Source: Hericium rajendrae
Lineage: Eukaryota > Basidiomycota > Agaricomycetes > Russulales > Hericiaceae
NCBI GenBank assembly: GCA_033439255.1
Contig: CM065886.1
Location: forward strand, 1,922,001 to 1,986,000
DNA length: 64,000 nt
Direction: 5' to 3'
Below, piece after piece: positions 27,208 through 64,000 of the stretch. The notes under the pieces were generated by a model. The model was not told the origin of the DNA and ran no database searches. It worked only from the letters and a program-made list of their open reading frames with translations. Both the position numbers and the translations under genes were made by a program. The stretch's first letter is position 1. Every line of letters starts with the position of its first letter.

Positions 27208-29337
27208 TAGGGTTCGACACAAGTCAGAGTCACCTGTAGGTCAACACGGGTATACCCATAAAATTGACCTGCAGGTATCTAACTTGTAGATCTAGATCAC
27301 CTGGTGGCTGAGACCTGTACAAATCCAGATCAAAGTTGTGCTCAAACCCATTGACCTGTGAGTGACCTGTGGGTAACCTGCTATCCAAACTTTATTTTGG
27401 TTAACATATTATATTGCAAAGTTCAAATCTATATGTCATGATCCCTAACTAACTACATACTATATGTCATCTGCCAACACTAACTTACAGCTCCAATCAC
27501 ATATGCACATTATCACTATATCTTGTCATACCCATGAAGTGTATAAAGTCTACAAGCAAGGCATGGATTCAAAAGGCTGCATACGACATACTTGTAGCAT
27601 CGACATGGGCATGTGCATGTCGGTGGGGCAGCTTTAAGTATGTGTGTGCACATGGGCTGGCACATGTGCAAGGGGAGCATATGTAGGTGCTGGTGTACTG
27701 GCATAGCTGTGGGCATGCACACACAAATGACATCACCAGCTTGGATGGAAATTGGGAATGAGACCGGAGAGGGTGCATTTTGATTGTTGAATAGCACTAA
27801 TGGCATATAAAACTTGTCTCACATTGGGCTTCTGTCAGACGAATGATATGACAGCATGCATAGTGGCATGTGTGATGTCCATGGGCATGAATGCACACAT
27901 GTAGTTTGAGCAATGAACTATGGGATGGTGGAGGCATGTAGTCAAAAATGTGTATGCTGGCAGGGCATGTATTGGTAGATGCACACTGTCTCAGACATGC
28001 AAGGATATGCAAAGCTGTTTGTAGACAACTGCGCATTGTTGAGGCATGCTAGGCACTGCTCGGATGATCAGCAAAAAGATGTCAAGCCTTGCTGTTGTAG
28101 CAACAATGCTGTAGCAACAAGACCTGACAGGCATTGTGGGCCTTGCAGTTGCAGCGCTAGACTGGCACTGTGCATGCTCTTACTGTTGTGAGTGGGAATT
28201 AAATCTCTGGTACACATGAGTACTAGTTGTCGAAGATGGGTAAGGGCCAGTTGGCTGGTTGACCTGTTGATGAGGACGATGGGAGAAGCACAGATGGTAC
28301 ACGAAATATGGTAGATGATGTCAAAAAATGGTGGGATGTCATGAAACCCATCAAACATCATGAAACCTGTGGAAGAACAGTGAAAAATGAGAGCCTTGCC
28401 TGTTATCGAGTGAGACTCCTGAGATCAGTATGGTACAATAAAATAAAAGGCTTTCAGACTCACCTAGAAGCCTCTCAAATCTCCATAACACCCATCCTGC
28501 CATTGAATTGAGGAGATATGGTAAAAAGGGGAGGATTAAGATGAAGAAACAAAGAGAAGGGCATCGTAAAAGTGAGACACAACTTTCAGACCAACTGACT
28601 TGCAAGTGACCTGTGATGTCACAGATACCTGACCTGCAGCTCCAGATCACCCAGTGGTGCAAATCTGCATGGATCCAGGTCAGCACCTTCATCAGGAAGG
28701 TTGACAACTTTCTGATTGACCTGACAATTTCTAACCCTACTGACAGCTCCTGATTGACCTGATCCACCTGAAAGCAATCTTAATAGGCAAATATCTGATC
28801 AAACTTTTACATTTAAGTAAAGACATTTATTGCCAGATATATAAGTTTGTAATCTCTAACTAATAGATATAACAAAATCTCTGATATCTGAAATTTTCTA
28901 AATCTGAGAGTGTCTGATCTGAGATTTTTTTCAAATCTGGAGGTCAAATATCTGAAAATTATCTGCAACTGTCTGAGAGCATCTGATGGTGTCTGACACT
29001 GTCTGATCCATCTGACTGATATTTGACCTCCAGATTTGAAATCAGACACTCTCAGATTTTCAAAAATTTCAGATATCAAAGATTTTGATATATCTATTAG
29101 TTAGAGATTAAAAACTTATATATCTGACAATAAATGTCTTTTCTTGAATGTAAAAGTCTGATCAGATATTTGCTTCCCAAGATTGCTTTCAGGTGGATCA
29201 GGTCAATCAGAAGCTGTCAGTAGGGTTAGAAATTGTCAGGTCAATCAGAAAGTTGTCAACCTTCCTGATGTTGGACAGATAGAATACCTGCGAGTTCAAA
29301 TCTAGGTCACCCACGAGTGCACTTGTGTTGAACCCTA
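27208..29337. mobile_element. hAT-like non-autonomous element B (CpG-poor), with nested fold-back element 5
   Basis: Ends TAGGGTTCGACACAAG / CTTGTGTTGAACCCTA with an 8-bp duplication, ATATGCTT / ATATACTT (one mismatch). The element is about 1547 bp after discounting fold-back element 5, matching copy B' at 36698-38440. Subterminal direct repeats 'GATCACCTGGTGGCTGAGACC' type occur at both ends. The interior is non-coding now but retains an exon-like block (about 28470-28530, minus) with an AGGTGAGT 5' splice site and an intron hairpin at 28389-28418. TG/CA-rich sequence where element A is CG-rich suggests long CpG decay. No transposase. Confidence 0.75.
28690..29270. mobile_element. CATCAG fold-back element 5 (581 bp)
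   Basis: TSD TT (28688-28689 / 29271-29272). The empty site is preserved at 38371-38372 in the second block copy. Same sequence class and length as elements 1 and 6. Confidence 0.9.
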
Positions 29338-29382
29338 ATATACTTAAAGTGATGTTTGCACAATTGATGCTCTCAGGCATTT

Positions 29383-29963
29383 CATCAGGAAGGTTGACAA
29401 CTTTCTGATTGACCTGACAATTTTTAACCCTACTGACAGCTTCTGATTGACCTGATCCACCTGAAAGCAATCTTGAAAAGCAAATATCTGATCAGACTTT
29501 TACATTCAAGAAAAGACATTTATTGTTAGATATATAAGTTTTTAATCTGTAACTAATAGATATATCAAAATCTTTGATATCTGAAATTTTTGAAAATTTG
29601 AGAGTGTCTGATTTCAAATCTGGAGGTCAAATATCAGTCAGATGGATCAGACAGTGTCAGACACCATCAGATGCTCTCAGACAGTTGCAGATAATTTCCA
29701 GATATTTGACCTTCAGATTTGAAAAAAATCTCAGATCAGACACTCTCAGATTTAGAAAATTTCAGATATCAGAGATTTTGTTATATCTATTAGTTAGAGA
29801 TTACAAACTTATATATCTGACAATAAATGTCTTTACTTAAATGTAAAAGTTTGATCAGATATTTGCCTGTTAAGATTGCTTTCAGGTGGATCAGGTCAAT
29901 CAGGAGCTGTCAGTAGGGTTAAAAATTGTCAGGTCAATCAGAAAGTTGTCAACCTTTCTGATG
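29383..29963. mobile_element. CATCAG fold-back element 6 (581 bp)
   Basis: TSD TT (29381-29382 / 29964-29965), with the empty site at about 38484 in the second block copy. It is inverted relative to element 5, judged from the asymmetric TCTGA-rich centre, and lies only 110 bp from it. Confidence 0.9.
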
Positions 29964-30599
29964 TTGTATAAGTTTTTTGTTACTCTAAACCTTCATGCTA
30001 ATCGACAGGCAATTTTACCAGAAAGTAGTTGCCATATTTGGTCACTAATTTCTGCCAGTATACAAAATATGGTTTGAAGGTAAGAATTCAATTTTTATAG
30101 TATTTTATGCATGTAAAATAGAAAAATACTGACTAGATTTAGGGTTCGACACGAGTCAGAGTCACCCGCAGGTCAGCACAGGTATACCTGCAAAATTTAC
30201 CCACAGGTATCTGACCCACAGATCCGGATCACCCGGTGGCTGAGACCCGTGCAGATCCAGGTCAAGGTTTCACTGAAAGGCATTGACCTGCGAGTGACCC
30301 GCAGGTGATCTGCCACCAAACCTTTTTTATTTATCTCCAAGGTATGTTATTGATATTCCTTGTACATATATAAAAGTTTCTAATCTACGAATGCTTACTG
30401 TACCACACCACTGCTCATTTACTGTGCCACCCTGCTCACATACTGTCATCTGCTGTCAACGCAGCTTCTGCATGCACTCATTGTGCGAGTAGCACGAATG
30501 TGGACGGGTCGTTGTGAGCACGCAGGAGTTGTCCGAGGCAAGAGAAGGCCCCGCTGAGCTCGCGCGGGCTGTTGAAGCCAAGCATGAGAGTGTGCGAGT

Positions 30600-31510
30600 C
30601 AGTATGGGCACGCCGCCATGCAGCACAGGGGACCGGATGGATCTTACCTGGAAGGGCAAATGATAGATTTGCGCGAAGAGCGAGGGCACGTGGGGGTGTT
30701 GGGAACCAGGATGTTATCGCTGTTCGCATTGTGGTATTGTGACTGGCAGCAGGAGGCCCAGGAGGGAGAACGGGCCGTGGCGAGCTTGCGCGAGTTGTGG
30801 CCGAGCTTGTATCAGCGGGAGGGTTAATCTTAGCTACGCGTATCACTTGAGATCTCGTTAGCACTCACCTTTCCTGCCTGCAAGATCAATACACCCCATA
30901 GCTTGCCCACAAACCCAAGACCGTCATACGGCGTGCCCTTAGACTTATGAGTTATGACGCGGCGGGGGCACACAGTCGGGTGTGTGCGCTGGTGGGGCAG
31001 GAATGGCAGGACGCACTGTCTGGGCTTGTGAGACTGTGTGAAGCCGTTCGCGCGGGCAACCCAATGCTGTCGGAGGGCATGCGGGGGATCGGAAGGGATG
31101 CGGGTACGGGCGATGTTGAAGTCGGCGTATGCTGCCTTGCGTGGGTGACCAACGAACAGAAATCGAGCCTCATTGCCATAGCAACGAGGTTTCACTTACG
31201 CGTCTGAGCGCAAGTCGAGGGAGATGGACGGGGGCCATGCACCATTGACATGCTGGGCGGATTGTCGAATGCGCGGTTGATAAGGAAAAGCGCGGGTGGT
31301 GCGCGAGATGTGAGAGAAGTATCGAGCGACGGTGGGGTAGGGCGGGGTGTTGTGCACTGTCAAAGAAGAGCAGAAAATGAGTCTCGCTCGGTATCGAGCG
31401 AGATTCCCAAGTTAAGTACAGTCCAGTAGAATCAGAGATTCTTTTCACGCACCTTTAGCCCCTCTGATGAATACAAGACCTTCTCCGCCGTCGAGTTGAG
31501 GAGAAATCGC
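30600..31510 (-). CDS. Spliced gene-like cargo of hAT-like element A, unrecognised
   Basis: On the minus strand a short exon ending LDGGEGLVFIRGAK reaches a 5' splice site (AAGGTGCGTG, about 31455). After an intron with a 3' site TTTGACAG (about 31353) the frame continues in phase as VHNTPPYPTVARYFSHISR...WPPSISLDLRSDA to GTAAGT (about 31200). Further on, THKSKGTPYDGLGFVGKLWGVLILQAGK ends at AAAGGTGAGTGCTAAC (about 30868), and another exon ends at CCAGGTAAG (about 30655). Consistent splice sites and stop-free exons suggest a captured or domesticated gene fragment. I recognise no domain. Both introns begin with strong hairpins. It may be non-functional cargo. Confidence 0.45.
31168..31189. repeat. 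Intron hairpin 2 in hAT-like element A
   Basis: Arms CCTCATTGC / GCAACGAGG just inside the second intron. Counterparts: 46806-46831 (AGTCTCGTTGCC arms) and 63558-63583 (AGTCCCATT arms). Confidence 0.65.
31379..31406. repeat. Intron hairpin 1 in hAT-like element A
   Basis: Arms GAGTCTCGCTCG / CGAGCGAGATTC inside the first intron. Counterparts: 28389-28418, 43011-43040, 46506-46536 and 63196-63228. Confidence 0.7.
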
Positions 31511-32000
31511 GAAGGGGAAGATGGGACTAGGAATGACCTGCGAGTGACTCGTGATGTCACGGGTACCCGACCCGCGGCTCCGGATCACCCGGTGGCTGAA
31601 ACCCGTGCAGATCCAGGTCTGCCCTCGCGATAGGTTGAATACCCGCGGGTTCGGATCCGGGTCACCCGTGAGTGCACTCGTGTTGAACCCTAACTAGATT
31701 ATACATTGAAGAGATATAAGCTCTATTTTAAAAAAAAACTGGTATGATTTATGTTATTTTTTGTAAAAGTCAGAAAAAAATCCAAATATAGAAATTAAAT
31801 TCTGTCTTTGGTGCTAGCAGCAATGTATACAAATCAATAGAAGGTGCACAGGCTAACAGGAAATGTATGAGGTAGTAGAAGCATACATAAGTTTGTTGTG
31901 ATGCTCATAGGTTGATACATGTGTAAGCTAATCAACAAAAGTATGCATAGGTCAAAACATGTGAGCCAAGAGTGCATATATGAGTTGGTGTAGTGTGTAT

Positions 32001-33157
32001 CATCTGAAAAATTGAAATTTCATATAGCCCAGTATTGATCTATATGTTTTATCATAGTACTATAAGGTCTATCACTATTTATGCCACCACAGTTCTCAAC
32101 TATGTAAGACTATGAGGCCTATCATAGCTATCATAACAGTAGTTGGACACTATATAGTGCTACATGTTTCTGAAAGATAGCTGTAGTTGTTGTACAAATC
32201 ATATAAATTCAAAGGCTTGCTCTGATCTATATGATCCCTACTATGATCCTTGCTATTAGTACTGTCTCAGATCAATCAGATACAAGAGATATAAAGCCAA
32301 AATCAATTATATTTCATACAGCTACTAGTACAATCAAGTATATTACAAGTTCAAACAGTGCACACATGCACAATGGTACACATCATGTACAGGTAGAGCT
32401 ATGTACAGGCATGTGTGCACTGGTAAGGCACAACAAAAGTACATATGTGCATAAGGCACTAGGTTCATGCACAAGGCATGATAAGTGTCATAGCTGTGTA
32501 GGAGGTCCAGTGGCCATGCTCACCAATGTTAAGCTGTAGTGGGCCTATATATAAGATGCAATGCACAGTGAGGATGTGTGAGATATTGAGAGCCATGCAT
32601 GAGGCATAGAGGGTGAGCATAAGGCATACAGGCCCATATGTAAGGCTGCTACTAGCTTGTACAGGAGATCAACAGGGTGTGGTGGCCATGCACAGGGTGC
32701 TGCAAGCATGTGCAGAGTGTCAAGATGCTGTGGGCCTGTACATGAAGTACAGTAAGCATCTATAGGATGGTGACTTGTATGCAAGATGTAGTGTAGCATG
32801 ATAAGCATGCATAAGGCACTAAGCCTATGCATGGCTTGGTATGTCTGTGTATGAGGCATGAGGCACAAGGTACAGGCAGGTGACACACCTGCACATAGCA
32901 ACACACAATGCATGTATATAGTTGTGCTGGCTGACATGCTCACATTCAGCTGTAGTCATCTCTAAGCTGTCACTGGCCCATCCACAAGGTACATCGAGAT
33001 GTGGTAGACCAGCATAGGGTGTGACCAGTGAACATGAGGCATAGTGAGCTGGCATGAGGTGTAGCAGGCATGCATGAGGCACTGGCCCCAGCACAATGCT
33101 ACATGCCAAGTATAAGACATGAGGTACAGGCCTGCATGCAAGATGTCAGTATACCTG
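32001..33157. mobile_element. CATCTG element, left half only (block copy 1), CpG-poor
   Basis: Starts CATCTGAAAAATTGAAATTTC and follows 41467 onwards closely in order, but with TG/CA where the 41467 copy has CG. It breaks off near 33157. Also present at 38960-40115 in block copy 2. Non-coding; minus-strand open frames here are decayed versions of the CpG array and are not genes. Confidence 0.7.
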
Positions 33158-33162
33158 TACAT

Positions 33163-33544
33163 TGTCATGAATCACCCATTGGTCTTCTTCATTCTCTTTG
33201 TTCCCTATATGGACACTCCCTTGTTATGTCCCCTTGTTCTCTGTTAGGATATCCCTTGTTCCCTGTTAGGATATCCCTTGTTCCCCTTTGGGACATCCCT
33301 TGTTTCCCTTCCCCTTGTTCCCCTTTCAGGATATCCCTTGTTCCCCTTTGGGCTATCCTTCCAGTATATATAGGGCTACCTTTCTGACTGGCTTCCTCAG
33401 TTTGTCCACTTGACTCTCCAGTCCCATTGTACCCTAGACATTCTCAGCCTGTCTCTACTCTCTATGACATCCTCTGCTCTTTGATCCTTGATCCCTTGGG
33501 GTGACTTGGATGGCTTCACTGTTCCCCTGAACCCAGTCTTGACA
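33163..33544 (+). mobile_element. Solo LTR (382 bp)
   Basis: TGTCATGAATCACC...CAGTCTTGACA with a perfect 5-bp duplication TACAT (33158-33162 / 33545-33549). The empty site is at about 40118 in block copy 2, so it is younger than the block duplication. It contains about six copies of a ~22 bp unit (GATATCCCTTGTTCCCCTTT). Solo LTRs arise by recombination between the LTRs of a full element. Confidence 0.85.
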
Positions 33545-33642: not shown

Positions 33643-34430
33643 TTCAAGTCTTGGTTTTTGAGCTCTGAACAATCTGAGGACTATGCATTATGTAGCATGT
33701 CTACAAAGCAATTGATTAGTACATTTCAGGGCATTTTAGAACAAGAGAATCAGTAGAGAACTGCTAGACTTACCTCAAAGTCAAGATGTTGAGGGGAAAA
33801 TCTCAATTTTGAGTCTTGATTTTCGAGTTCTAGATGATCTGGGGGCTATGTAGTATGGCTGGAAAGCAATTTACAAGTAGAGTCCAATGCATTTTAGAAT
33901 GAGAAAATTGGTGAAGAACTGCTAGACTTACCTCAAGGTCAAGATCTTGAGGAGATAATCTCAATTTCGAGTCTTGATTTCCGAGTTCTAGATGGTTTGG
34001 GGGCTATATAGCATAGCTGGAAAGCGATTAATCAGTAGAGTCGAACACATTTTAGAATGAGAGAATTGGTGAAGAATTGATGGACTTACCTCAAGGTCAA
34101 GGTTTCTAGGGGGTAATTTCAATTTCGAGTCTTGATTTTCAAGTTCTAGATGGTTTGAGGGATATATAGTATGGCTGGAAAGCAATTAATCAGTAGAGTC
34201 AAATACATTTTAGAATGAGAGAATCGGTGGAGAATTGATGGACTTACCTCAAGGTCAAGGTTCCTAGGGGGTAATTCCAATTTCGAGTCTTGATTTTCGA
34301 GTTCTGGATGGTTTGAGGGATATATAGCATGGCTGAAAAGCAATTAATCAGCACATTCTGACACATTTGAGAACGAGAGAATCAGTGAAGAATTGATGGA
34401 CTTACCTCAAGCTCATTTGAATAATGATGA
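33643..34430 (+). repeat. Tandem ~155 bp units, second subtype
   Basis: Five units, with 'GAGTCTTGATTTTCGAGTTCTAGAT' type blocks beginning near 33650, 33820, 33972, 34127 and 34283 (spacing about 152-165 bp). Each unit contains 'GGCTGGAAAGCAATTAAT', 'TTTAGAATGAGAGAATCGGT' and 'GACTTACCTCAAGGTCAAG'. Related in layout to the 158 bp units but a distinct subtype. Confidence 0.7.
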
Positions 34431-34732
34431 TGGGTTAATTTTCAACTAAGCAGATATGCTAGCATAGCTCAGAAGGCATTGTCTAAAAGCAGCTGTCAAT
34501 GTGATTTTGAAAAGGTATAATACACTCTGGTTGGTGCTAAATTTAGAGACCTATGAATAAATTAGTCTGCCAGCTCAGCAAGTGAGATACATACAAGATG
34601 ACCAAGGTGAGCCATCGGGTTGAGTACCTCCTGGTTTCAAACTGTCAACCACTCAGCGGATGACTTGGAGATACCCATTGAGCCTTGCAGCTAACATGAC
34701 AAGCATGCAGGATGTAAAGCTCATTACGATTC
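34431..34732. other. Non-coding spacer between repeats
   Basis: No gene or clear repeat. Just after it begins the second copy of the large block. Confidence 0.4.
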
Positions 34733-36697: not shown

Positions 36698-38440
36698 TAG
36701 GGTTCGACACAAGTCAGAGTCACCTGTAGGTCAACACGGGTATATCCATAAAATTGACCTGCAGGTATCTAACTTGTAGATCTAGATCACCTGGTGGCTG
36801 AGACCTGTACAAATCCAGATCAAGGTTGTGCTCAAACCCATTGACCTGTGAGTGACCTGTGGGTAACCTGCTATCCAAACTTCATTTTGGTTAACATATT
36901 ATATTGCAAAGTTCAAATCTATATGTCATGATCCCTAACTAACTACATACTATATGTCATCTGCCAACACTAACTTACAGCTCCAATCACATATGCACAT
37001 TATCACTATATCTTGTCATACCCATGAAGTGTATAAAGTCTACAAGCAAGGCATGGATTCAAAAGGCTGCATGCGACATACTTGTAGCATCGACATGGGC
37101 ATGTGCATCATCAGGAAACTCTTCACTTTCCTGGCTTTACTGTTGTAGGTCTGATGTCACTGTTTGAGGCCTGATGTTACTGTTTTCAGACTGTTTTCAG
37201 ACACAAGTCAGATCCAGATGTCTGAAAACAGTAATATCAGGTCCAAAACAGTAACATCAGACCTACAACAGTAAAGCCAGGAAAGTGAGAAGTTTCCTGA
37301 TGATGTCGGTGGGGCAGCTTTAAGTATGTGTGTGCACATGGGCTGGCACATGTGCAAGGGGAGCATATGTGGGTGCTGGTGTACTGGCATAGCTGTAGGC
37401 ATGCACACACAAATGACATCACCAGCTTGGATGGAAATTGGGAATGAGACCGGGGAGGGTGCATTTTGATTGTTGAATAGCACTGATGGCATATAAAACT
37501 TGCCTCACATTGGGCTTCTGTCAGACGAATGATATGACAGCATGCATAGTGGCATGTGTGATGTCCATGGGCATGAATGCACACATGTAGTTTGAGCAAT
37601 GGACTATGGGATGGTGGGGGCATGTAGTCAAAAATGTGTATGCTGGTAGGGCATGTATTGGTAGATGCACACTGTCTCAGACATGCAAGGATATGCAAAG
37701 CTGTTTGTAGACAACTGCGCATTGTTGAGGTATGCTAGGCACTGCTCGGATGATCAGCAAAAAGATGTCAAGCCTTGCTGTTGTAGCAACAATGCTGTAG
37801 CAACAAGACCTGACAGGCATTGTAGGCCTTGCAGTTGCAGCGCTAGACTGGCACTGTACATGCTCTTACTGTTGTGAGTGAGAATTAAATCTCTGGTACA
37901 CATGAGTGCTGGTTGTCGAAGATGGGTGAGGGCCGGTTGGCTGGTTGACCTGTTGATGAGGACGATGGGAGAAGCACAGATGGTACACGAAATATGGTGG
38001 ATGATGTCAAAAAATGGTGAAACATCGTGAAACCTGTCGAACATCATGAAACCTGTGGAAGAACAGTGAAAAATGAGAGCCTTGCCTGTTATCGAGTGAG
38101 ACTCCTGAGATCAGTACAGTACAATGAAATAAAAGGCTTTTGGACTCACTTAGAAGCCTCTCGAATCTCCATAACACCCATCCTGCCATTGAATTGAGGA
38201 GATATGGTAAAAAGGGGAGGATTAAGATGAAGAAACAAAGAGAAGGGCATCGTAAAAGTGAGACACAACTTTCAGACCAACTGACTTGCAAGTGACCTGT
38301 GATGTCACAGATACCTGACCTGCAGCTCCAGATTATCCAGTGGTGCAAATCTGCATAGATCCAGGTTAGCACCTTGGACAGATAGAATACCTGCGAGTTC
38401 AAATCTAGGTCACTCACGAGTGCACTTGTGTTGAACCCTA
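36698..38440. mobile_element. hAT-like element B', block copy 2
   Basis: Duplicate of element B, same ends and same flanking 8-bp duplication; 1547 bp without fold-back element 7. Present before the block duplicated. Confidence 0.75.
37109..37302. mobile_element. CATCAG fold-back element 7 (194 bp)
   Basis: Ends CATCAGGAAACTCTTCACTT / complement; TSD AT (37107-37108 / 37303-37304). The empty site is at about 27619 in block copy 1. The arm AAACTCTTCAC is unique in the window. Confidence 0.9.
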
Positions 38441-40436: not shown

Positions 40437-43010
40437 ACTAGCTTGAAGTAGACAGACGTAGCAGGAAGGTACAATATGCACTGTGCTCGAGATGCATCCA
40501 GCACAGTTGGTGGTTCACTGTGTGTACACACTGGCAATGGGATCTGTAGTGCGGCGGCATGTCCTATTATGAGCAGGGGCTCACTCTGGCAAGTTGCAGG
40601 CACATTCATCACGTCAGGCAGAGTGTCAGCTGGCACGTCGTGCAGGGCTTGCTCTGCGGCGGTTGGTGACATGTGGTCTGGAGGCAGTTGGTCGGCCTCA
40701 GGGACAGTACGGTCTGTCGTGGGGGTATCTCTCAGTACAGCATCGTCCCCATCAATGGCGACCCACTCCTCTGGAGCACGACCATCAAAAAGTTCAATTA
40801 GCCAATCATCTGCAGGCATGTCAGTCATTGGCAGCAGTGCAGCATCATCCCAAATGACATTGCACTCGATAGTGATCGAGTGCTTGCAGGCCAATATACT
40901 AATATTCCTTTGCTCTTGCTGCTGTAGCTGACGAACTTCCCTTTGTTAGCACATTCGTCAAGCTTCCATCAGTTCTCAATGCAGACCCAGATGGGGCATT
41001 CCCATTCATGCAGGTCCAACAGGTCTGGTTTCTCGCTGAATGCCCATTCATATCAGGTTTGGTTGCCAGTGATCTTTCCCCTCGTGCAGTTCCAAAGCTA
41101 CATGGCATGTTGCATCACAGTGGCCCAGAGGAATTTAGGGAGTCCCACGGCCAATAGCATTGTGAGCATGCATGTGACGCTCATGCAGAAAAAAAAGTTC
41201 TGCAGCACCATTCTGTGAAGACGAGTCATGGACCGTCTTTTCATGATGTGTGCCTTGCTTCATGAGATGATCTTCAAATGCGAGGCTGGTGTACTTGCCA
41301 CCTCAGTCAGAACAGAAAGTCTGTATTACAGAGACCCCCCAATGAACTTGGACAAATTTCTCGTAGTTCACATATTTGTCGAAAGCTTCACTCTTGTGCT
41401 GGAGGAATGAGATGAGGACCTCATAGGTTGCATTGTCCAATAATGTCATAGCATACCAATGTCCAGCATCTGAAAAATCACAATTTCATATAGCCTAGTG
41501 TTGATTTATATGTCCTATCATAGTGCCATGAGGTCTATCACTATCTATGTAGCCATCTTTCTCACCTATGTAAGGCTATGAGGCCTATCATAGCTTATAT
41601 AGCAGTAGTTAGACACTATACAGTGCTATATATTCCTAAGGGGCAGCTATAGCTGCTATATAAACTCACTGGCTTGCTATGGTCCCTATGGTCCCTATGA
41701 CCCCTATAGTGAGGTATGGATACTAATATCATTATCTCAAGTCAACTAGGTACGAAAATTATAGAGTCAAAATCAATTATATTCAATACAATTACTTCCT
41801 ACTACAATCAAGTACACTACAAAATAATACAGTGCATGCGTGCACAGTGGCACGCGGCATGCACAGGTAGAGCCATGCGCAGGCATGTGCGCGCTGGCAG
41901 GGCACGACAAGGGCGCGTATGCGCACGAGGCGCGGCAGGCGCGCGCAGCGCGATAGTCGTGCACGCGGCACAGCAGTCGCGCACGAGGCACAGCAGCCCT
42001 GTGCCGAAGCGCTGGGCCCGTGCGCGAGGCGCTGGAGGCGCTGTGGCCGTGCGCACCAGCGTCGGGCTGCGGCGGGCCCGTATGCGAGATGCGGGGTGTG
42101 CGCTGAAGACACAGCGCACGGTGCGTCCATGTGCGAAGTATTGAGGATGTGCGCAAGGCACGGCGGGCGAACGCAAGGCGCCCCATGCCCGCAAGGCGTG
42201 CGAGCCCGTGCGTGAAGCGCTGGCTGCCGCTGGCCCGTGCGCGACGTGCAGCGGGATGTGAGGGGCGGGCATGAGGCACGGCGGGCATGCGCGGAGCATG
42301 AGGCGGCCGCTGGCTCGTGCCCAAGGTGAGGTGAAGGGCGATATGGTGCAGTGGGGCACCGCGGGGCGTGGCGAACGTGCGCTCGGCGTGGCGGGCATGC
42401 GCGGGACGTGGCGGGCATGCGCGGGACGTGGCGGGTGTGCATGAGGCGTGGCGGGCGTGCGTGAGGCGTGACGGGCGGATGCGAAGCGTGATGGGCGCGA
42501 GCGGGGTGCTGGCTCGTGCACGAGGTGCGGCGGGGAGCAGCAGGATACGGCGAGGCAGCGGGCCCGCGCATGGCCACGCACGACGTGTGCGCGTGCGTGT
42601 GCTGGCTGGTGCGCCCGCGCGAGGCTGCGGCCATCAGCCTGCTGTACGTACGCTGACGGGGCTGCACGCAGCACAGCCGGGTTGCGCGCAACCCATGGGC
42701 TCGTGCACGAGACGGGCCACGCACAGCACGCCTGGCCCGTGCGCTGGATCACGAGGCCGTGCGCGAGGGATACAGCCCGTGCTCGAGGCAACGGGCGGGC
42801 GTGGGCGTTATCCGGCGAGGTGCATGCGCTGGCGCACGTGGACGTGGGCATTGGGAGACAGCACGCCAGCCACTGCGGGCGTGACGGCGATGCTGAGCGA
42901 TGGGGAGGCGACGGCGAGGCGACGGGAGGAGACGGCGGGAGGAGACAGCAGGAGGCGACGGCGAGGCGATGGCGGGAGGGGGCAGGGAGAGGCGCGGGAG
43001 AGAGCAGGTC

Positions 43011-43040
43011 GAGAGTACCGCTCGTACGAGCGGTACTCTC
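43011..43040. repeat. Perfect 30-bp palindrome (intron-type hairpin 1)
   Basis: Arms GAGAGTACCGCTCGT / ACGAGCGGTACTCTC. Core CGCTCG/CGAGCG shared with hairpins at 31379 and 46506; outer arms differ but remain complementary. Confidence 0.8.
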
Positions 43041-43476
43041 TACATTAGCACGAATAGACACAGATAGTTTTTTTTTTACTCACCTTATGGCCCCTCGTCA
43101 CCCTACTACCCTCCTTCGGTGTTCAGTTTGAGACGGGAGAGGACGGAGGGAGGGAGAAGGGTTGAGTGGTGGTGGGAGAAGAGTCAAACGTGGAACATTC
43201 GAACTTCGACGTGCGTTCAGCCGTCGAACGCGCGCGAGTTCGAATGTTTCGAGCGTAGTAAATCAAGTTAAATAGAAAAAAATCAAAGAAAAAGCAAGTA
43301 CATACAACTCATTGATAGAATGCAATTGAATGAGCTCATTATCTATCTACTGTACTACAGGCTACCGGGCAGCGACACGAACTTAATGATGTCTGCTGCC
43401 TTAGCCTCTGATGCAGCGTCCGGCAGCGCCCGGGCCGAGTCGCGTCACCCACATTTGGCGCTCCGCTCGCCACGTC

Positions 43477-43486
43477 TATATAAGGC
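43477..43486 (+). promoter_or_regulatory. TATATAAGGC promoter-like box in CATCTG element 1
   Basis: Embedded in a conserved GC-rich context (ACGTC upstream, GCGCGACTCG downstream). The same box occurs reversed at 46052-46061 and 62727-62736 in the other two CATCTG elements, in keeping with their orientation. Suggests a transcribed non-coding unit. Confidence 0.5.
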
Positions 43487-46400
43487 GTGCGCGACTCGCT
43501 TTCTCTCTCTCTTCCTTACCACTACCATCTCTCGTCTTTCGTCATCCCTCTTCTTCTACTTTAACTTTCTTATGTTTGATAAGTTGTCATATTGTTTTAC
43601 TATCTCTAACCTTATATTATTTGTGGCCTTTGCATTTTCGCTTTTTTTTCTTCTTGATATGTTGTTATATTGTTTGATTGCTTCTAACCCTATTGTTCTT
43701 TATAGACTTTGGAGCATTTTTGCTTTTATTTTCTTAGGTAAGCCTTATGTTTCATTTTATTTTCTTGTCTATGTAATACTAATTTGTTGACTTCTTTTGT
43801 AGATCATTTTCGCTTTTTCTTATCTTTATAGTAAGTCTTATCTTTCTTATCTTTTATCTTATCTTATCTTATCTTATCTTATCTTATAGTCTAATCATAT
43901 TTTGTAGTTTATTATAGATAGTATATTATAGATTTGTTAGTAATGTTTGTAATAGTGTACAAGATGTATTACTTGAAATTTAATGCTTTTAAATCTTTGA
44001 TATTTTGAATATTTGAGATATGTTAGCATCCTATGAGCAAGATTGTTGGTAGAGATAATATAGAGTAGATAGCAGTCTTACTAGCTAGATATAATATGAT
44101 ACTAAGGATATATCATATAGATAATATAGCTACAATGTCCATCATATACTATGATAGCTATAATAACTATTGTCCTATAGTAGATGACTATGATGGCTAT
44201 AATAGTTATTGCTTCATCTTATGATAGCTATGATAGCTATGATAGTCCTAGATAGATTGCCTTGCTGCTATGAGAAGCTATGTAGAAAAGAAGACTGTTA
44301 TGAGGAGCTATATAGAAAAGGAGACTGCTATGGCCCTATCAGAGCTATATAAGCTATATAGTGTTATATACCACTGTTATATTTTTCAGATGAGCAAGGG
44401 ATGCAATGTGAGCAGGGCCAAATAGATCAGACGATACAAGTTTGCCATAGATTGTCAATCGAGGCCATGTGCATTCTTTTGGAAATGACACATGCTGGAT
44501 TTTTGCTTGGACACAAGCTCGGCAGAGTTTCATCTCCTGGATCAGATCATCGAGATTAATGCCAGTGATCGTGCCACGCTTGATTAGAGACTTTGCAGCA
44601 TCAATTGACATATGGCCTAGCTGGTGATGAAGGTCAGCAGCGAACAGCATGAGATTGGCACTATGGTCATTGACGGCTGCAATGGAAGCTAGCACATGTG
44701 TGAGTGCATCTGCAGGACTAGTAAATTTGTAGAGGTTGTTGTCACGCAGGATGCATGTGATGGTTTGTCCAGCGGGACTGCAAATCTGGCAATGTCTATT
44801 GCAGAACATTGTCGAAAAGCCCAATGCATTAATGCGGCTAATTGAAATCAGGGTAAACGCTATGCTCAGCGTGTACAGTACTGTACCATTTCGATTGTAA
44901 GCTCATGTCACAGGTCACAGGAACCCTTGAGCTATGCCTAATCACCACTTTGTTACTGGTCACAAAGTCTGATGAGCCTCATTGATATCTGTGACCAAAT
45001 TTTGATTATAATTAAATTAAAATCAAAATTTTCTCGGTGTAATGCAAGACCTTTGTGGAGGGCTAAAATCATCTCATTACATGTTCAAGCTGTCTGAGCA
45101 TTCACACATCTGAAAAACTTACAAGTGGTACATAGCTCTATGAAGTCTACATAGATTTAATAGTTCCATAGCACTGCCCTTTTCTCTGTAGCCCACATAG
45201 CTAAAGGGGAGTGCTATATAGTGCTATGGAGCTTAAGGGTGATGCTATGGAGTGCTATCATAGCTATGAGAGTTGACTATGCAGCTATGATAGTATGACT
45301 AGCTATGAAAGCTATAAGTGTTCATCAAAGCTGTAAGGCTTATGAGTCTTGTATATCTTATACCCAATATGTGTTTTATATATTCTATATTCAATATGTG
45401 TCTCACATATTCTATACTCAGTTTAAGTCTCATATATTTTATATTCAATATGTAGGCCTGATATATATTGAAGCAATAAAAACTGTTAAAACTATAAATC
45501 TTGTCTACAGTCATATCAAAATCAATAACATATAATCACACAAATATAAACTCTTTCAATGCATCAACATTATATTGATATTATAAAACTACTACTAACT
45601 AAAATAAAAAAAAAGTAACAATATAAGTAAGAAAATATAAATTAGATAAGATAAGATAAGATAAATTTATAAGAGATAAGATAAGATAAGTAAGAGAATA
45701 TAAGAAAACATAAGAAAAGATAAAGATAACACATACAAACTTACCAAAGTAACAAAAAGTGAAATCTAAAAAAAACTAACTTGAAGACATTAGTATTAGT
45801 ATGAGCAATAAGAGACCAACAACAATTAATGGTTACCTTATATATAGCAACAACGAGCAAATAAATAAATAAGAATGGTGACGAACAAGCAAGAAATGGT
45901 GACGAACGAGCAAGAAATGATGACGACCGAGCAAGAGATAATGATGACCGAGCAAGAGATAATGACGAGCGAGCAAAGGACGTTGACGAAAGCGTCGATG
46001 TGGCAAGAGATAGTTGGGGTTAAAGAGCAAGAGGCAACGCGCGTCGCGCGAGCCTTATATACGAATCCCGGGCGGATCCGGGATTCGTGGTTGCCGGAGC
46101 ACTTGCTGAGCGTCGCGTCGAGACTGGGCGCCAGACTTCACTAAATGGACTTGGCTCCCTGTGAGCTTCATGCATAGTAGATACCTCGTATGCTCATTAG
46201 TTCGAATCATATGTATAATTTGTAGCTATACTGTTTTTTTTCTAAATTAATGCGAATTTTCTTGATTTGTTGTGGCTCGAGGAATGTAGCTTCGCTCGTT
46301 CGGTGGCTGAAGCACCGAAGGCGTGTCGCTCGACTTGTTGCTTTCACTCGTCATCCTCCCCTTCGTATCTCCTCATGGCTCCTTACATCCTTTCCGTTTC

Positions 46401-46505
46401 AACGTCCTCGTCTGCTCTGTTTTCGAAGCCGGAAGGGTATTATGGGAGTCAGAGGGGCCCAAGATACATATAAAAAGCTTTTATTTTCATTGTATCTACT
46501 AATCT

Positions 46506-46536
46506 CGAGTCTCGCTCGATTATCGAGCGAGACTCG
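46506..46536. repeat. Hairpin 1 in CATCTG element 2
   Basis: Two 15-nt arms (CGAGTCTCGCTCGAT and its complement) with one central base. Confidence 0.75.
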
Positions 46537-46805
46537 TTTTCACTTGTTCTTCGACCACTCTACGCCACCTTCCATGCCCTTCGACACCCCGCCTCGTCTC
46601 TCGCACACTCCGCGCCTGTTTCCCCACTCCCCGCCTCGTCGACAACCCACGCCCACGCCGCCGCCGACACACGCCACCCCCGTCCTGCGCACACAGCTGC
46701 GACAACACGCGGGGACTTCCACCGGCTTGCGCACGGTACCAACCACACGCAGGCACTCCCAGCACCCACGGACGTGGCCTCAAGAGCCTGCCCACCCAGC
46801 AAAGC

Positions 46806-46831
46806 AGTCTCGTTGCCACGGCAACGAGACT
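46806..46831. repeat. Hairpin 2 in CATCTG element 2
   Basis: Arms AGTCTCGTTGCC / GGCAACGAGACT, two-base centre, about 275 bp after hairpin 1. Confidence 0.75.
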
Positions 46832-49440
46832 CGACAATGCGTCGTCCGCCTCATACTGCGTCGCCAGCCACACGCCCGTCTGCCTGCGAGCACGGTCCCC
46901 CACGACAGCGCCAGCACACGGCCGCGCACGCCTGCACCAGCGCACGAACCCGTGCGCACGGACCCCGTCAACATCGCTCAAGCCCCCACACGCATCCTCG
47001 CATGGCAGCGCCAGCGCGCGGACACGATGCGCACGTTGTGCAGAGTCCACTCTGTCCTGCACGCACCCAACGGACCACGCACGGCTGCAGCTCGCACACG
47101 AGCCAAGTAGCGTGCGACCCGCTCTCCTCGTGCACGTCTTGCGCCTGTCTCGCACCCCTCGCACCTGTCTCGCACCTGTCGTCGCCCTCTCGCGCATGTT
47201 GCCGCCTTCTCGCGCATGCCGCCCTCGCATCGCGCACGTCTTGCATGCCTTGCCCATGCCTCGGTGTCATCGCCCTCTCGCACACATTGCCACCCTCTGG
47301 CACACGTCGCCGCCCTTTGGCGCACGCCTCCGCCCCCTCACGCACGCCTCTGCCCCTTTGTGCCCGTCGCTGCTCTCTCGGTCACCTCGCTGCTCTCTCG
47401 GTCACCTCGCTGCTCTTTCGGTCGCCTCGCGCACGTCTCGGATGCCTCGCGCACGCCGCGGACGCCTCGCGCACGGCGCCGCCGTTTCGCGCACGTCCCC
47501 GCCATTTCGCGCACGTCCCCGCTGTTTCGCGCACATCCCCACCGTTTCGCGCACATCCTCGCCATTTCGGCACGTCCCGCCCTCTCGCGCACGTCTCGGC
47601 GCCCTAAGCGCATGTCCCGCGCTCCTCGCACATGGCCTGCGCCTTCATAGATGGCCCCAGCCCTCTCCGCATGCATTGTCTTGCCGACGTTATAATTATC
47701 GTAGCTAGTGACTACTGTAGCTACATTGGGATTGTCAATAAATTCACCTTGACAACTCAGCTTGTGCTCTGGTCTGCTATATAATAAAATTTAGCTTGAT
47801 GTCTTGGGTGTCTATCTGTCTAGTCATAGGGCACATAGCTCCCATAGCATGCTTAGGAGGTTATATAGCAATCATAGCCATCTCTCATGTTTACATAGTG
47901 CTATATCTCTTGTATCTACTGCTATGGAAACTATAATGGCTATTATCGCTCTATATATATGAGAAGGGAACTATGTAGACCACATAGCCATATGATAGAC
48001 TGCATAATCTAACACCAGTCTATGTAGATTTCACATTTTTCAGATGCAACAAGATAATATGAGATGTCTCCAAGCATATGAGCCTGCAAATCCCTGAAAA
48101 CATAAGGGATGAGTGAGCCTATTTTATTTTGGTCATGGGTCACAGCCCGTTGTGAGCCTAAGAGACCAAATGAGCCTACTAAGTTCTCAGTCACAGCTCA
48201 ACCCCCATGAGCCTATGATCAAAATGGTACAGTACATCCTTCAGGGTGATCCTGGTGACTGTGTCACCATTTGGGAAGGTAATAATTACATCACTGCAGC
48301 CTGTCACGAAGAAAACATGCTTGTCAGCAGTGATGATCGGTTTAGGTGCAATCTGATGGAAGTTCAAGAATTCTGATCAGAAAGAGGAGTAATGGTGACT
48401 GGTGCTGATGTCGATGCATTGCATCAGTGCTGAGTCAGGAACCGTGGCAGCTAGTGCTGAGAAAGCAAAATGGGTCTCGAGGGTGGCAGCCACATTTGCT
48501 GTACCTTTCCCATTGCTGTCCTTGTCTTTCCTGCTGCTCTTGCCCTTCCTATCGGATTCCTGCCCCTCCTTTCTGTCTTCTTTCTGCCAGCAATTAGTGG
48601 TGCTGTGAAAATGGTGTCTGCAGTTCGAGCACTTGACATTGTTCTTTGTGCCAGAGCTGCTGCCATTGCTGTTGCCACACATGTCTTGGCTAGTGCCATG
48701 CTTCTTTGGATCAGATCCCACGATGAGCACTGTATCAACCTTGTTGAGCTGGGCCTTGATCGCATGGTGATCAAATTCCTCATCGACGTGAGAAATGATG
48801 GTCATTGGCAGGATGGTCTTTCCAGTGATACAAGCAGCTGAGAGCATTGCTGAGAGGACAGGATTGTAGTCAGTGGGAAGTAAGGATAAAATTATGGCAG
48901 TGAAATTGGTGTCAATTAGTTTAGCCCCCATGCCTGCTAATTCTTCCTTCATGCAAAGCAACAAATTGAAGTGCTTATGGACGTCGCCACTGGTTTGACA
49001 ACCTGTCTCCTGGAGCCATCACCGGAGATCAATTTGGACCATTTTGGTCTTGCCCTTGTATTCATTACAAGTATGGTAGACCATACTTTGTGTGCACGAT
49101 CGAGATCTTGCATGCATAAAAGGAGTGATTTGGTGATCGTCAAGAAGATCTGTTGTTTGATGGTATATTCCTGTTGGAGCCACTTGTCCCACTTTTCTTT
49201 GTAATCATCCAGTTGCTTGGTCATCAGATTGACATCCTTTTTGTCTTTATTGAGTGATGTCAATGGTTCCTTTGGTTCCTTGGCGGTGCCTCTCAGATGG
49301 TGCATCAAACCTTCACTCCGATCATGGTCACGATGCAGGTTTTGTACATCACCCAGTTCGAGCCTTTGGCTGTGAGCTTTGGGACAGTGTAAAGGTTGAA
49401 TGAGTTGTTGAGCAACATTGATTCAGGACCAGGGCCCATA

Positions 49441-49695: not shown

Positions 49696-50116
49696 CATCA
49701 GGAAGCCCCTAAACTTTCTGAGACAGTCTGTCACTTTTACAATAACTGCAGCTACTGCAGAGTCTGATACACCTGTTGCAAATTTTCATATGTTAATATC
49801 TCATTAAATATTTAGCTTAAACAGTAGAGACCTCTTGTTAGATATAGTAGTTATCTATCTTTAATTATTAAATATAATACAATTTCCTTAATCTAAAATT
49901 TACAAAAATCTTTTGTTGTCTGAGATCATTTCTGACTGAATCTGGTAGTCAAATAATCTGATGTTGTCTGAGACTGTCTGATTTTATCTGATGCTATCTT
50001 AACCTAACTAATAGCTCTTTGACATCATCTGATGTGTCTGACTTGACTCACACGATGTTCTGCAGGTCCCGCAGATTTCCACAGGTCAAATCAGAAAGTT
50101 TAGGGGCTTCCTGATG
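49696..50116. mobile_element. CATCAG fold-back element 8 (421 bp)
   Basis: Ends CATCAGGAAGCCCCTAAAC / complement; TSD TG (49694-49695 / 50117-50118). Confidence 0.85.
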
Positions 50117-60062: not shown

Positions 60063-60184
60063 CTACATACTACTGCTATTGAAGAGTGCTCTAGTTGTTC
60101 CATTATTCTGAGCACTGTACGACATACTATTGTCGTCCAAAACAGTGACTTGACTTGCCCTGTGTAACTTGCTTTGTGTGTCTG

Positions 60185-61321: not shown

Positions 61322-61530
61322 CATCAGGAAGGTTGACAACTTTCTGCTAGACCTGCGAGCAATCTGAGAGCATCTGAGAGCATCTGATTGACCTGCAGAT
61401 TTTCTGATCTTGTCTGACAAATAAATCAGACACTCTCAGATAAGATCAGAAAATTTGCAGGTCAATCAGATGCTCTCAGATGCTCTCAGATTGCTCGCAG
61501 GTCTAGCAGAAAGTTGTCAACCTTCCTGAT
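61322..61530. mobile_element. CATCAG fold-back element 11 (about 209 bp)
   Basis: Left end CATCAGGAAGGTTGACAAC, right end GTTGTCAACCTTCCTGAT. Left flank CT; the right boundary is altered (CTGATAGG) so no clean 2-bp duplication can be read. The interior is a nearly perfect palindrome. Confidence 0.75.
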
Positions 61531-61678
61531 AGGCTATACCACTAGCAAATACACCTTGGTTATCTTTTATAGTCAAATATAAAGGTCCCATCCCAGAACA
61601 TAATCCACCTGCATAGATGCTTACTGAATATGAGGTGTGGTATCGCAATCCAAAATCAGTAATTGAGAGTCAACTTGC

Positions 61679-61760
61679 ACTTGGTGGAAGAGGGCCGATG
61701 CTTCGCACAGCAATACGATTCCTTTTTCATTGTTAGTTATATTTAGAAACAGTGCATAAA
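61679..61760 (+). repeat. Terminal-repeat-like motif, left orientation
   Basis: CTTGGTGGAAGAGGGCCGAT... through ATACGATTCC, same as at 23891. It truncates Plavaka copy 3. Confidence 0.55.
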
Positions 61761-61828
61761 TGATGTAAAGTCTCACTTGTCAGATTGATTATAAGTCTCT
61801 ATAAAATCTATAGCTACCTCAAGGTCAA

Positions 61829-64000
61829 CATCTGAGAAATATGTCACTGGTATATAACACTATATTAGCTACATAGCTTTCCTAGGTCCATAGCTGTCCT
61901 CTTTTATACATAGCAGTCAAGTAAACTATGCAAAGCTATCATAGCTTGTCATAGCTGTCATAGCATAAGGCATAAGCTATCATAGCTACCATAGCTACCA
62001 TAGCATAGGGCATAAGCTATCATAGCTGTCATAGTTATTCTAGTATAAGATAACTATAGAAGCTATATTAACTATATAATATATCTCTATCATTATATTA
62101 TATCTAGCTAGTAAGATTTCTATCTACTCTATATTACTTCTATCAAATATGCTAAAATAGCATATAAAATAAATATATTATAGATTCAATAGTCTGATGT
62201 CTTACAGTCACAAACATCGAACATCGAAAATTGGATAAATTATATTACTCAAACAATTTTATTACAAAACATTACTATAGCTACAGAGACTACTACAGAA
62301 CTACAAAAGGTAACAAACTTACAATGACTACAAAAAGCAAAAGATACAAATAAGAAAAGACATGAGTATTAGAAGATAACAAAGATAATATATGAAGACT
62401 TACCAGATTAACAAAAAAAGCAAAAATCTACAAGACAATTTGAAGACATCAGTATAAAAAACAATCAAGCTTACCTAGTAGGACTACATGGTAATGTAAT
62501 AAGTATGAAGACATTAGTATAAGTTATAAGATAATTAAGAATAACAGCATACCTTTAGCAACAAAGAGAACAATAATAATAAAATGAGCAAACGACAACA
62601 ACGAGTGAGCAAATGATGACGACGAGCGAGCAAACGATGACAAGTGGGCAAGCAACAACGACAAATGTGTCGACGTGGCAAGGGATGGTGGGGGTTAAAG
62701 AGCAAGAGGTAAAGTGCATCGTGCCAGCCTTATATAGGAATCCCAGACAGAACTGAGATTTGTGGTTGCCGGGCACTTGCTGAGTGTCGTGGCAGAGACT
62801 GGATACCAGACTTTACTACGTTGATGCTGCTGCTCACAGATTTACAGTCCAGTAGATACACAGTGTTCTCATACATTCTAATTAAATGTATAATCTATCA
62901 CTGTCCCTTTTTTTATTGAATTTATACAAGTTTATTTGATTTGCTGAGGCTCGAGCAATGAAGCTTCGCTTGTTTGGTGGCTGAAGCACCAAGTTTAACA
63001 TGTCGAGACTTCACTCCTTTTGACCAGTCTCCCTTCCCCTCCTTTATGTTTCCTCCTCCAGCCTCCTTCTTTCCATTTCTTTCGTTCTCTATCAGCTTTC
63101 AATATAGCTGGGATGGTTTTTTTTAGCAGATACTTAGAGGGCCTTAGGTGAGTAAAAAAAAAAAAAGCCTCTTATCATTTTTTCGTACTAATCAAGAGAG
63201 TGTCAATTGTTTTTCGAGCGACACTCTCGATATCTTTTATTCTATTGATCCCACATCCCTGCGCTATCATCCTATGATCCCACCACCTTTTTTGCACTCT
63301 CATTGCCCCTTCCTCGGCCTGTCTACACCACATCTGTGCCCCGCGTGCAGCTCGTACACCCCATGCCTGACTCCAACAGGCTGCGACCCCTGTGCATGCC
63401 TCTGACCACCATCCCCTTCCACGTGCACCAGCGTGCACAAGGCCACAGCATACGCGCATGCATGTACCACGTGATGTCATCTGCACGATGTCAACGACAT
63501 GTGCGCACGGGCTATGTCATCGTCCATGCCCCATATCCGTGCATGTGCATGCGCCGTAGTCCCATTGTCATGGAAATGGGACTCAGACATCATTCATGCC
63601 TATCGGCCATGACCCCGCATGCTCGTCTCAATCCCCACAAGGCCTCGTGCTTGCATTCAACACTGTGCACACTTGCAATGTCCCGTCCGCATGCTCAAGC
63701 CCCCACACCCACTCACAATGCCTCGCACCTGCTCACAATGCCCCGGACATGCGCGCCATGCCCGGTTGCATGTATACTCCTGCAGCTGCTCAACTCAACA
63801 TGCCCCGCGTGTGTGCACAACAACCTGCACAGATGTACGACAACCACACATGTGTGACATGCCATACAGTGTCTCTTCGTGTATGCAGAATGTCCCGCAT
63901 GCCCACTCCAGGTCTCCCGCACATGCTCGACACCCACACGTGCTGGACATCCCCTGCACGTGCCCAGCTTCACCTCTGCATGCACACAGATGCCAGTGCA
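61829..64000. mobile_element. CATCTG element 3, right side beyond window
   Basis: Starts CATCTGAGAAATATGTCAC (B-end), then TAGCTATCATAGC repeats (61930-62040), reversed TATA box (62727-62736), a 'GGCTCGAGCAATGAAGCTTCGCT' block homologous to 46270-46300, exon-like block ending at a GGTGAGT site (about 63150), hairpin 1 (63196-63228), a C-rich tract, hairpin 2 (63558-63583), then a TG/CG array. Same polarity as element 2 and moderately CpG-depleted, so of intermediate age. Long frames at 63175-63985 are artefacts. Confidence 0.7.

What the first reader, a model, noticed from the sequence alone, without database searches (positions are those of the whole stretch)
28389..63583. Two unrelated transposon families share an exon/intron-hairpin module
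In hAT-like elements A and B and in all three CATCTG elements the same order recurs: a short exon-like block (consensus about L-x4-G-x-V-x4-E-G-x-K), usually a GGTGAGT-type splice site, hairpin 1 (31379, 28389, 43011, 46506, 63196), a C-rich tract of 200-330 bp, then hairpin 2 (31168, 46806, 63558). The hairpins keep a core (CGCTCG/CGAGCG in hairpin 1) while the outer arms differ and stay complementary. Sharing across families with different ends and duplication lengths suggests one module moved between them, by capture of the same host gene or by nesting.
Basis: partly seen in the sequence, partly recalled or inferred. Interest (0 to 1): 0.85.

Follow-up and report, generated by a model that had tools for sequence, protein, structure and literature searches.

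The report
Shared intron-hairpin block in two transposons
In what looks like a mushroom-type fungal genome, two kinds of jumping DNA with different ends carry a related stretch that looks like a short exon, an intron start and a strong hairpin, which suggests that such elements can share non-coding gene parts.

Summary
A block (136-246 columns by blastn, more with gaps) is homologous between TAGGG-ended elements (A; B and its duplicate B'; 8-bp target duplications, empty site for A) and CATCTG-ended elements E1-E3 (2-bp duplications in E1, E2). With hairpin 1 masked, B-E2 likeness still beats 300/300 shuffles.

Whether the block moved between the families after they diversified is open. Strict scores put B and A nearest E2, but the unrooted module tree also fits ordinary descent with E2 as the basal E lineage.

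The core reads as an intron: GTG(A/C)GT in 5 of 6 copies, a YTRAY site 38-43 nt on, then hairpin 1, which holds most AGs before the candidate acceptors. E2 lost both splice sites yet keeps a perfect 14-bp stem, which argues against a pure splicing role.

The hairpins are far beyond chance; covariation is suggestive only. Hairpin 2 is clear in A, E2 and E3, not convincing in E1 or B. B and B' are one insertion. I found no coding signal, no Rfam family, no further copy in the window. No genome is held, so a host source and a real covariation test remain open.

The parts
30140..31692 (-). Element A (TAGGG family), 1.55 kb, intact ends; module on minus strand
   Evidence: Ends TAGGGTTCGACACGAG...GAACCCTA, duplication ACTAGATT at 30132-30139 and 31693-31700; empty site in the duplicated flank at 38652-38659
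27208..29337 (-). Element B, interrupted at 28690-29270 by a CATCAGGAAG...CTTCCTGATG element
36698..38440 (-). Element B', duplicate of B, with an inserted inverted-repeat element at about 37109-37302
   Evidence: 96.6-99% identity to B with flanks; 8-bp duplication with one mismatch; inverted repeat 37106-37305
41467..44392 (-). Element E1 (CATCTG family), module on minus strand
   Evidence: CATCTGAAAA...TTTTCAGATG, flanking AG/AG; an ORF with a copia-type pre-integrase match adjoins on the right
45107..48046 (+). Element E2 (CATCTG family)
   Evidence: flanking CA/CA; copia-type pieces on both sides, 44354-44902 and 48377-49018
61829..64000 (+). Element E3 (CATCTG family), runs off the window
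   Evidence: CATCTGAGAAAT left end; homologous to E1/E2
31150..31530 (-). Module in A
28210..28590 (-). Module in B (CpG-decayed)
   Evidence: nhmmer hit
37896..38276 (-). Module in B' (CpG-decayed)
   Evidence: nhmmer hit
42650..43215 (-). Module in E1
46320..46850 (+). Module in E2
63000..63600 (+). Module in E3
31379..31404 (-). Hairpin 1, A; CGCTCG/CGAGCG core
28391..28418 (-). Hairpin 1, B (decayed; same letters as B')
38077..38104 (-). Hairpin 1, B' (decayed)
   Evidence: fold z +0.34
43011..43040 (-). Hairpin 1, E1: 14-bp perfect stem, 2-nt loop
46506..46536 (+). Hairpin 1, E2: 14-bp perfect stem, 3-nt loop
63196..63228 (+). Hairpin 1, E3: outer arms paired, inner core broken
31166..31191 (-). 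Hairpin 2, A (GTTGCTATGGCAAT core)
46806..46831 (+). Hairpin 2, E2: 12-bp perfect stem, GTTGCCACGGCAAC core
63559..63584 (+). Hairpin 2, E3 (decayed core)
31357..31452 (-). Candidate intron in A, 96 nt: GTGCGT...TACTTAAC...H1...TTTGACAG
28367..28463 (-). Candidate intron in B, 97 nt: GTGAGT...TACTGATC...H1...TTCCACAG
42893..43083 (-). Candidate intron in E1, 191 nt, ending at the first AG after H1
63148..63350 (+). Candidate intron in E3, 203 nt, ending at the first AG after H1

Best explanation
The module is a homologous segment without detectable coding signal, carried by two families of apparently non-autonomous DNA transposons in a fungal genome: a short exon-like block, an intron start and hairpin 1, followed by a C-rich tract. 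Shown: homology across families, the shared order, splice-like signals with near-fixed spacing, and strong hairpins. Inferred with limited support: the segment passed from one family to the other (rather than being captured twice from a host gene), possibly after the E family had diversified, because E2's copy is nearest to those of A and B under strict scoring. Inferred with weak support: it is transcribed, and hairpin 1 acts in the intron, sitting between branch point and acceptor, holding near AGs in a stem and bringing a farther AG into reach (56-58 nt from the branch point in A/B, 152-194 nt in E1-E3). Where the splice sites are lost, as in E2, the hairpin persists and may have another role.
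For: Homology; with H1 masked, B-E2 30.5 vs null maximum 19.0 (0/300), B-E3 2/300, A-E2 2/300. Passage between families: under strict scoring A-E2 55.5 and B'-E2 51.5 exceed A-B' 47.0 and E2-E3 42.0; with H1 masked B-E2 30.5 exceeds A-B 25.5, E1-E3 22.0, E1-E2 22.0 and E2-E3 21.5. Branch {E1,E3}|{A,B',E2}: bootstrap 99 (module), 97 (core), 92 RY-coded. Transversions over intron and H1, five-way alignment: A-E2 0.07, B'-E2 0.13, A-B' 0.17, E1-E3 0.18, E2-E3 0.22, E1-E2 0.26; the promoter segment in contrast has E2-E3 at 0.10. Intron: donor-to-branch distance 38 nt in B, B', E1 and E2 (from the lost donor's place), 39 in A, 43 in E3; AGGTGAGT-N25..45-CTRAT-N0..8-GAG gives 4 matches at 3 places, all modules, shuffles mean 0.03. 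After H1 the first AG comes after 116, 158 and 120 nt in E1, E2 and E3 (shuffle P 0.12, 0.005, 0.04). [quoted passage not shown] cerevisiae introns (PMC12350175, 12 passages seen).
Against: The module tree also has a branch {A,B'}|{E1,E2,E3} at 97, so it fits one E clade with E2 basal; the AU tests only compared placements of E1, E2 and E3 with A+B' kept together. In the core and RY trees B'+E2 gets only 58 and 41. With gap-lenient scoring E2-E3 has the highest raw score, 167.5, against 143.5 (A-E2) and 143.0 (B-E2). By identity over intron and H1, A-E2 and B'-E2 (0.70) hardly differ from E2-E3 (0.68). Over the wider core the transversion contrast is not significant (A-E2 33/188 vs E2-E3 47/197, p 0.13). 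With H1 masked A-E1 (20/300), A-E3 (107), B-E1 (101) and even E1-E2 (72) are within chance. Splicing: E2, with a perfect H1, has lost the donor and the near acceptor; in E1 and E3 the acceptors would be 152-159 nt from the branch point, long for a fungus (recalled); the B/B' stem is decayed although its splice signals are intact. No RNA data.
Confidence: 0.38

Rival explanations
1. Two independent captures of the same host gene's 5' end, as in Pack-TYPE elements, without passage between the transposon families.
For: Exon-intron signals look like an ordinary gene start. The tree fits one E clade and one A/B clade. Capture by non-autonomous elements is known (Pack-TYPE, PMC8903248, and fungal Helitrons, PMC4289320; both search listing only).
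Against: E2 is nearest A/B under strict scoring. No further copy lies in the window. No host genome is held, so the decisive test could not be run.
Confidence: 0.3
2. Hairpins 1 and 2 matter as DNA: palindromic binding sites (H2 has the form of an X-box, GTTGCC-NN-GGCAAC, recalled) or palindromes kept symmetric by templated repair between their arms. This can hold together with either history.
For: E2 keeps a perfect H1 without splice sites. H2 of E2 and A match GTTGCYNNGGCAAY exactly, the only two exact places in the window. Arms differ between copies but stay largely complementary, as arm correction would give.
Against: Loops of H1 differ in length, unusual for a dimer site. With up to 2 mismatches the X-box pattern is not enriched (20 found, 15.25 expected). 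H2 is not convincing in E1 or B. H1 sits at a fixed place after a branch-like site, with the donor on the same strand.
Confidence: 0.3
3. The likeness is convergence of GC-rich, low-complexity sequence, with hairpins by chance.
For: The C-rich tracts align poorly (0.35-0.54 identity just after H1), and some pairs reach only chance scores.
Against: Stems exceed every shuffle; H1 column-shuffle score 13 vs maximum 9 in 60; B-E2 without H1 0/300; near-fixed spacing.
Confidence: 0.02

Closest known systems
TET/JBP dioxygenase genes shared between fungal DNA transposon superfamilies (Kojima 2025, PMC12730594; parts 1-4 of 7 of the text seen)
   Same: One segment occurs in fungal transposons with different ends and duplication lengths; that paper reports no terminal signature at the borders of the shared part.
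   Different: There a protein gene is shared; here a segment without detectable coding signal, with intron signals and hairpins.
Pack-TYPE non-autonomous transposons (PMC8903248, search listing and start of abstract)
   Same: Non-autonomous elements carrying gene-like parts.
   Different: Described in plants; the source here is unknown, and the shared part recurs in two families.
V domain shared by SINEs and the MER6 DNA transposon (PMC6887750, abstract and outline)
   Same: A non-coding domain found in unrelated element classes.
   Different: Animal SINE domain in a mariner-type MITE; the abstract mentions no intron signals or paired hairpins.
[quoted passage not shown] cerevisiae introns (PMC12350175, 12 passages)
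   Same: A stem after the branch point that can hide cryptic 3' splice sites.
   Different: Host introns probed in vivo; here predicted only, in transposons.
PlavakaB and other CMCT elements (PMC12730594)
   Same: E1 and E2 have CA..TG ends and 2-bp duplications, as the CMCT group does.
   Different: PlavakaB ends are CATCA..TGATG; E1 and E2 end CATCTG..CAGATG, and no transposase match was found in the ORFs tested.

Membership tests
hAT (elements A, B) | 8-bp target duplication | tested here: met
   ACTAGATT twice with an empty site (A); ATATGCTT/ATATACTT (B'). Zisupton also makes 8 bp, so this is not specific.
hAT (elements A, B) | hAT transposase | tested here: not met
   No Pfam match up to E 1 in the 3 A/B' ORFs among the 10; other frames not scanned. 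Expected for a non-autonomous element; superfamily left open.
CMCT group / Plavaka (E1-E3) | CA..TG ends and 2-5-bp duplications | tested here: met
   E1 and E2, AG and CA; a 2-bp match has a chance of about 1 in 16 each. E3 not testable (runs off the window).
CMCT group / Plavaka (E1-E3) | Transposase of the group | tested here: not met
   No Pfam match up to E 1 in the 7 E1, E2 and E3 ORFs among the 10; other frames not scanned. A Plavaka transposase lies elsewhere, 16611-18104.
Spliceosomal intron with a downstream stem | Donor, branch site, acceptor in order | tested here: inconclusive
   By sequence in A, B, B', E1 and E3; donor lost in E2; candidate acceptors differ between families. No RNA evidence.
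Spliceosomal intron with a downstream stem | Stable stem between branch site and acceptor | tested here: met
   H1 in E1, E2, E3 and A (z -3.2 to -6.0); not in B' (+0.34)
Known RNA family (Rfam 15) | Match at the module | tested here: not met
   7 matches at E<=1, all below gathering scores and none in a module
Pack-TYPE capture | A host gene as source | not testable with these tools
   No genome held; no further copy in the window
X-box / RFX site (H2) | Bound by an RFX protein | not tested
   Only the letters agree; the consensus is recalled

The most novel reading that the evidence does not exclude
Fungal DNA transposons of different superfamilies trade a portable non-coding start cassette: an exon, and an intron with a built-in hairpin that controls which 3' splice site is used (or keeps the transcript or the DNA from silencing), parallel to the traded TET/JBP genes but without a protein.
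Probability: 0.18. Interest if true: 0.78.

Novelty: new variant of a known kind. Interest (0 to 1): 0.5.

Why it matters
Sharing of protein genes between fungal transposon superfamilies is in print (PMC12730594). Sharing of a non-coding, intron-like block whose hairpin arms change but stay paired would mean that selection or exchange also acts on RNA or DNA structure in non-autonomous elements. Five searches of the paper library listed nothing that, by title and start of abstract, describes this; the library holds open-licence papers only.

Tried and rejected
Protein-coding module: all-frame ORF comparison gave similarity in several frames at once. Frames across the candidate splice junctions are open in A (two phases), B and B' but give no clearly alike peptide across copies (judged by eye), and E1's exon-like frame has stops. 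No Pfam match up to E 1 in 10 ORFs. Rejected as unsupported, not disproved.

Known RNA or tRNA: none in the module. More copies elsewhere: H1 pattern 0 in viral contigs; 12 bacterial records in genome contigs, taken as chance and not examined further. X-box/RFX paper search: listing only, nothing used. Introner search: listing only, not pursued.

A first hairpin scan on the E1-E3 alignment was too strict and found 0; I then loosened the scoring, so that result comes from a second setting. The second hit (43474 / 46064 / 62739, score 8) is within the null. Alignment used wrong B' coordinates and was replaced; misaligned E1, so E1 was left out of the H2 count and the upstream hairpin was not counted. 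The masked part was invalid (mask letters matched each other) and was replaced. An upstream hairpin with loop GCTGAA in E2/E3 is not supported by folding (z -0.9, -0.7); E1 has a strong but different one (z -4.4).
Full report
What the window is. No genome is held for it. A Plavaka transposase (PF18759, E 1.5e-102, 16611-18104) and copia-type gag and pre-integrase pieces point to a fungus, most likely a mushroom-forming one (inference). CpG is at 0.60 of expectation, with TG and CA at 1.30 and 1.27, so CpG decay is expected in old copies.

The elements. A (30140-31692) has ends TAGGGTTCGACACGAG...GAACCCTA and the duplication ACTAGATT. The surrounding DNA is duplicated, and the other copy has the empty site ACTAAATT at 38652-38659, so A is a real insertion. 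B (27208-29337, interrupted by a CATCAG-ended element at 28690-29270) and B' (36698-38440) are one insertion copied with its flanks (25233-28689 against 34723-38375, 97-99%). A and B' align at 54% overall (782 of 1447 columns); by eye the ends and the module are more alike than the middle. E1 (41467-44392), E2 (45107-48046) and E3 (61829 to the window's end) share CATCTGA ends; E1 and E2 have 2-bp flanking repeats AG and CA. The superfamily of A/B is open: 8 bp fits hAT and Zisupton alike. E1 and E2 fit the CMCT group by their ends (PMC12730594).

Is the module real? By blastn, A and E2 share 246 columns at 64% and B' and E2 share 136 at 73%. Gap-lenient alignments extend this to 460-500 columns, where identity is inflated by the gaps. 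Against locally shuffled sequence, 8 of 10 pairs of A, B', E1, E2 and E3 exceed all 300 shuffles; A-E3 (115) and B'-E1 (24) do not. With gap-lenient scoring, A-E3 (9 of 200) and B-E1 (90 of 200) again fail (first table). With hairpin 1 masked, A-B and B-E2 exceed all 300; A-E2, B-E3 and E1-E3 are reached by 2 each and E2-E3 by 4; A-E1 (20), A-E3 (107), B-E1 (101) and E1-E2 (72) are not distinguishable from chance. So the homology of B and A with E2, and of B with E3, goes beyond the hairpin; elsewhere it rests on the hairpin or on neighbouring parts of the E elements. A profile of the five copies finds no further copy in the window beyond B.

Hairpins. Among 13 perfect stems of 10 bp or more with loops of 2-8 nt in 64 kb, the two longest are H1 of E2 and E1 (14 bp). 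H2 of E2 (12 bp) ties with two copies of an unrelated palindrome. Ten shuffled windows gave at most one stem each, none above 10 bp. H1 folds with z -6.0 (E2), -5.1 (E1), -3.9 (A), -3.2 (E3) and +0.3 (B'); H2 with -4.6 (E2), -2.6 (A), -1.1 (E3); the E1 candidate is at -1.2. On the E1-E3 alignment H1 scores 13 against a maximum of 9 in 60 column shuffles (second setting; the first found nothing). Counting pairs on 5 distinct rows, 89.8% of cells pair against 24-41% when slid. Two pairs change on both sides; the covariation score is reached by 15 of 500 shuffles and the pair count by 116 of 500. H2 on 3 rows has 3 such pairs, reached by 37 of 500. That is suggestive; with so few copies it is no proof of a conserved RNA.

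Intron reading. In the strand where the donor reads GTGAGT (A: GTGCGT; E2: lost) a YTRAY site follows 38, 38, 38, 38, 39 and 43 nt later in B, B', E1, E2, A and E3. The combined pattern gives 4 matches at three places in the window, all of them modules (B, E1, E3), against 0.03 expected. H1 begins 4-9 nt after the branch A. In A and B a pyrimidine-rich stretch and CAG follow H1, giving introns of 96 and 97 nt. In E1, E2 and E3 the first AG after H1 comes only after 116, 158 and 120 nt; the chance of this in shuffled 200 nt is 0.12, 0.005 and 0.04, and the test was chosen after looking. AGs nearer the branch site lie in H1, one of them straddling its first base in E1 and in E3; the exception is an AG 6 nt from the branch A in B and B'. 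[quoted passage not shown] cerevisiae (PMC12350175, passages) and AG exclusion zones in human introns (PMC1431707, listing only). Against it, E2 keeps a perfect H1 with both splice sites gone, and B/B' keep splice signals with a decayed stem.

Passage or capture. Along E1-E3 the similarity is mosaic. Near the ends E1 and E3 are alike (75%; E2 54-55%). In the promoter region E2 and E3 are alike (68-71%; E1 50-61%). In the intron and H1, E2 is nearest to A and B' by transversions (0.07, 0.13; E2-E3 0.22, E1-E2 0.26 in the five-way alignment, 0.24 and 0.20 in the three-way one), although by identity the gap is small (0.70, 0.70 against 0.68). The tree separates {E1,E3} from the rest (97-99; RY 92), and the two other placements tested have AU p 0.045 (module) and 0.033 (core). 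The same module tree separates A+B' from all E copies (97), so it also fits E2 as the basal E lineage. Over the wider core the transversion contrast is not significant (p 0.13), and gap-lenient raw scores put E2 nearest E3. I hold passage between families somewhat more likely than two host captures, at limited confidence; its date is open.

Coding. No frame is favoured: several frames match at once, no Pfam family is hit in the ORFs tested, and E1 has stops in the exon-like frame.

Known or new. Sharing across superfamilies is known for TET/JBP genes in fungi (PMC12730594) and for a SINE domain in a MITE (PMC6887750, abstract). A traded non-coding exon-intron-hairpin block was not described in what five searches listed. 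I rate it a new variant of a known kind, interest 0.5, because the part that would be surprising (a conserved, functional, exchanged hairpin block) cannot be settled with five copies.

Noticed in passing
25233-28689 and 34723-38375 (also 31690-33175 and 38649-40134): A direct duplication of several kb at 97-99% identity, about 9.5 kb apart (about 7 kb for the second pair of intervals), carrying element B; later insertions in the copies leave empty sites in the other.
   Followed up: partly
7098-7678, 28690-29270, 29383-29963, 49696-50116: CATCAGGAAG...CTGATG inverted-repeat elements with the end type that PMC12730594 gives for PlavakaB; two sit in and beside element B.
   Followed up: partly
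45730-46335, 62400-62997, 43210-43780: E elements have a conserved CTTATATA block (TATA-like, reading away from the module) and, toward the end, GGTAAG donors with branch-like sites seen by eye, as if a second, divergent spliced unit existed.
   Followed up: no
46061-46088 and 43190-43275: Further hairpins upstream of the module: an 11-bp stem by the TATA block in E2 (decayed in E3), and a long stem in E1 (fold z -4.4).
   Followed up: partly
32001, 38960, 40379: More CATCTGAAAA-type ends; the first two lie in the duplicated DNA and continue as a CpG-poor relative of E1's left part, without a module hit.
   Followed up: partly
3872-4290, 25412-25879, 33689-34415, 34890-35418, 51230-51790, 53060-53441: Tandem arrays of a 158-160-bp unit, related to one another on both strands, recurring through the window.
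   Followed up: no
61379-61474: Rfam miRNA families (mir-3914 and others) match below gathering score on both strands; by eye this is the inverted repeat of a CATCAG-type element.
   Followed up: no
671-1381: ORF with a Pfam ribonucleotide reductase small-chain match (E 5.6e-10), possibly a host gene or pseudogene.
   Followed up: no
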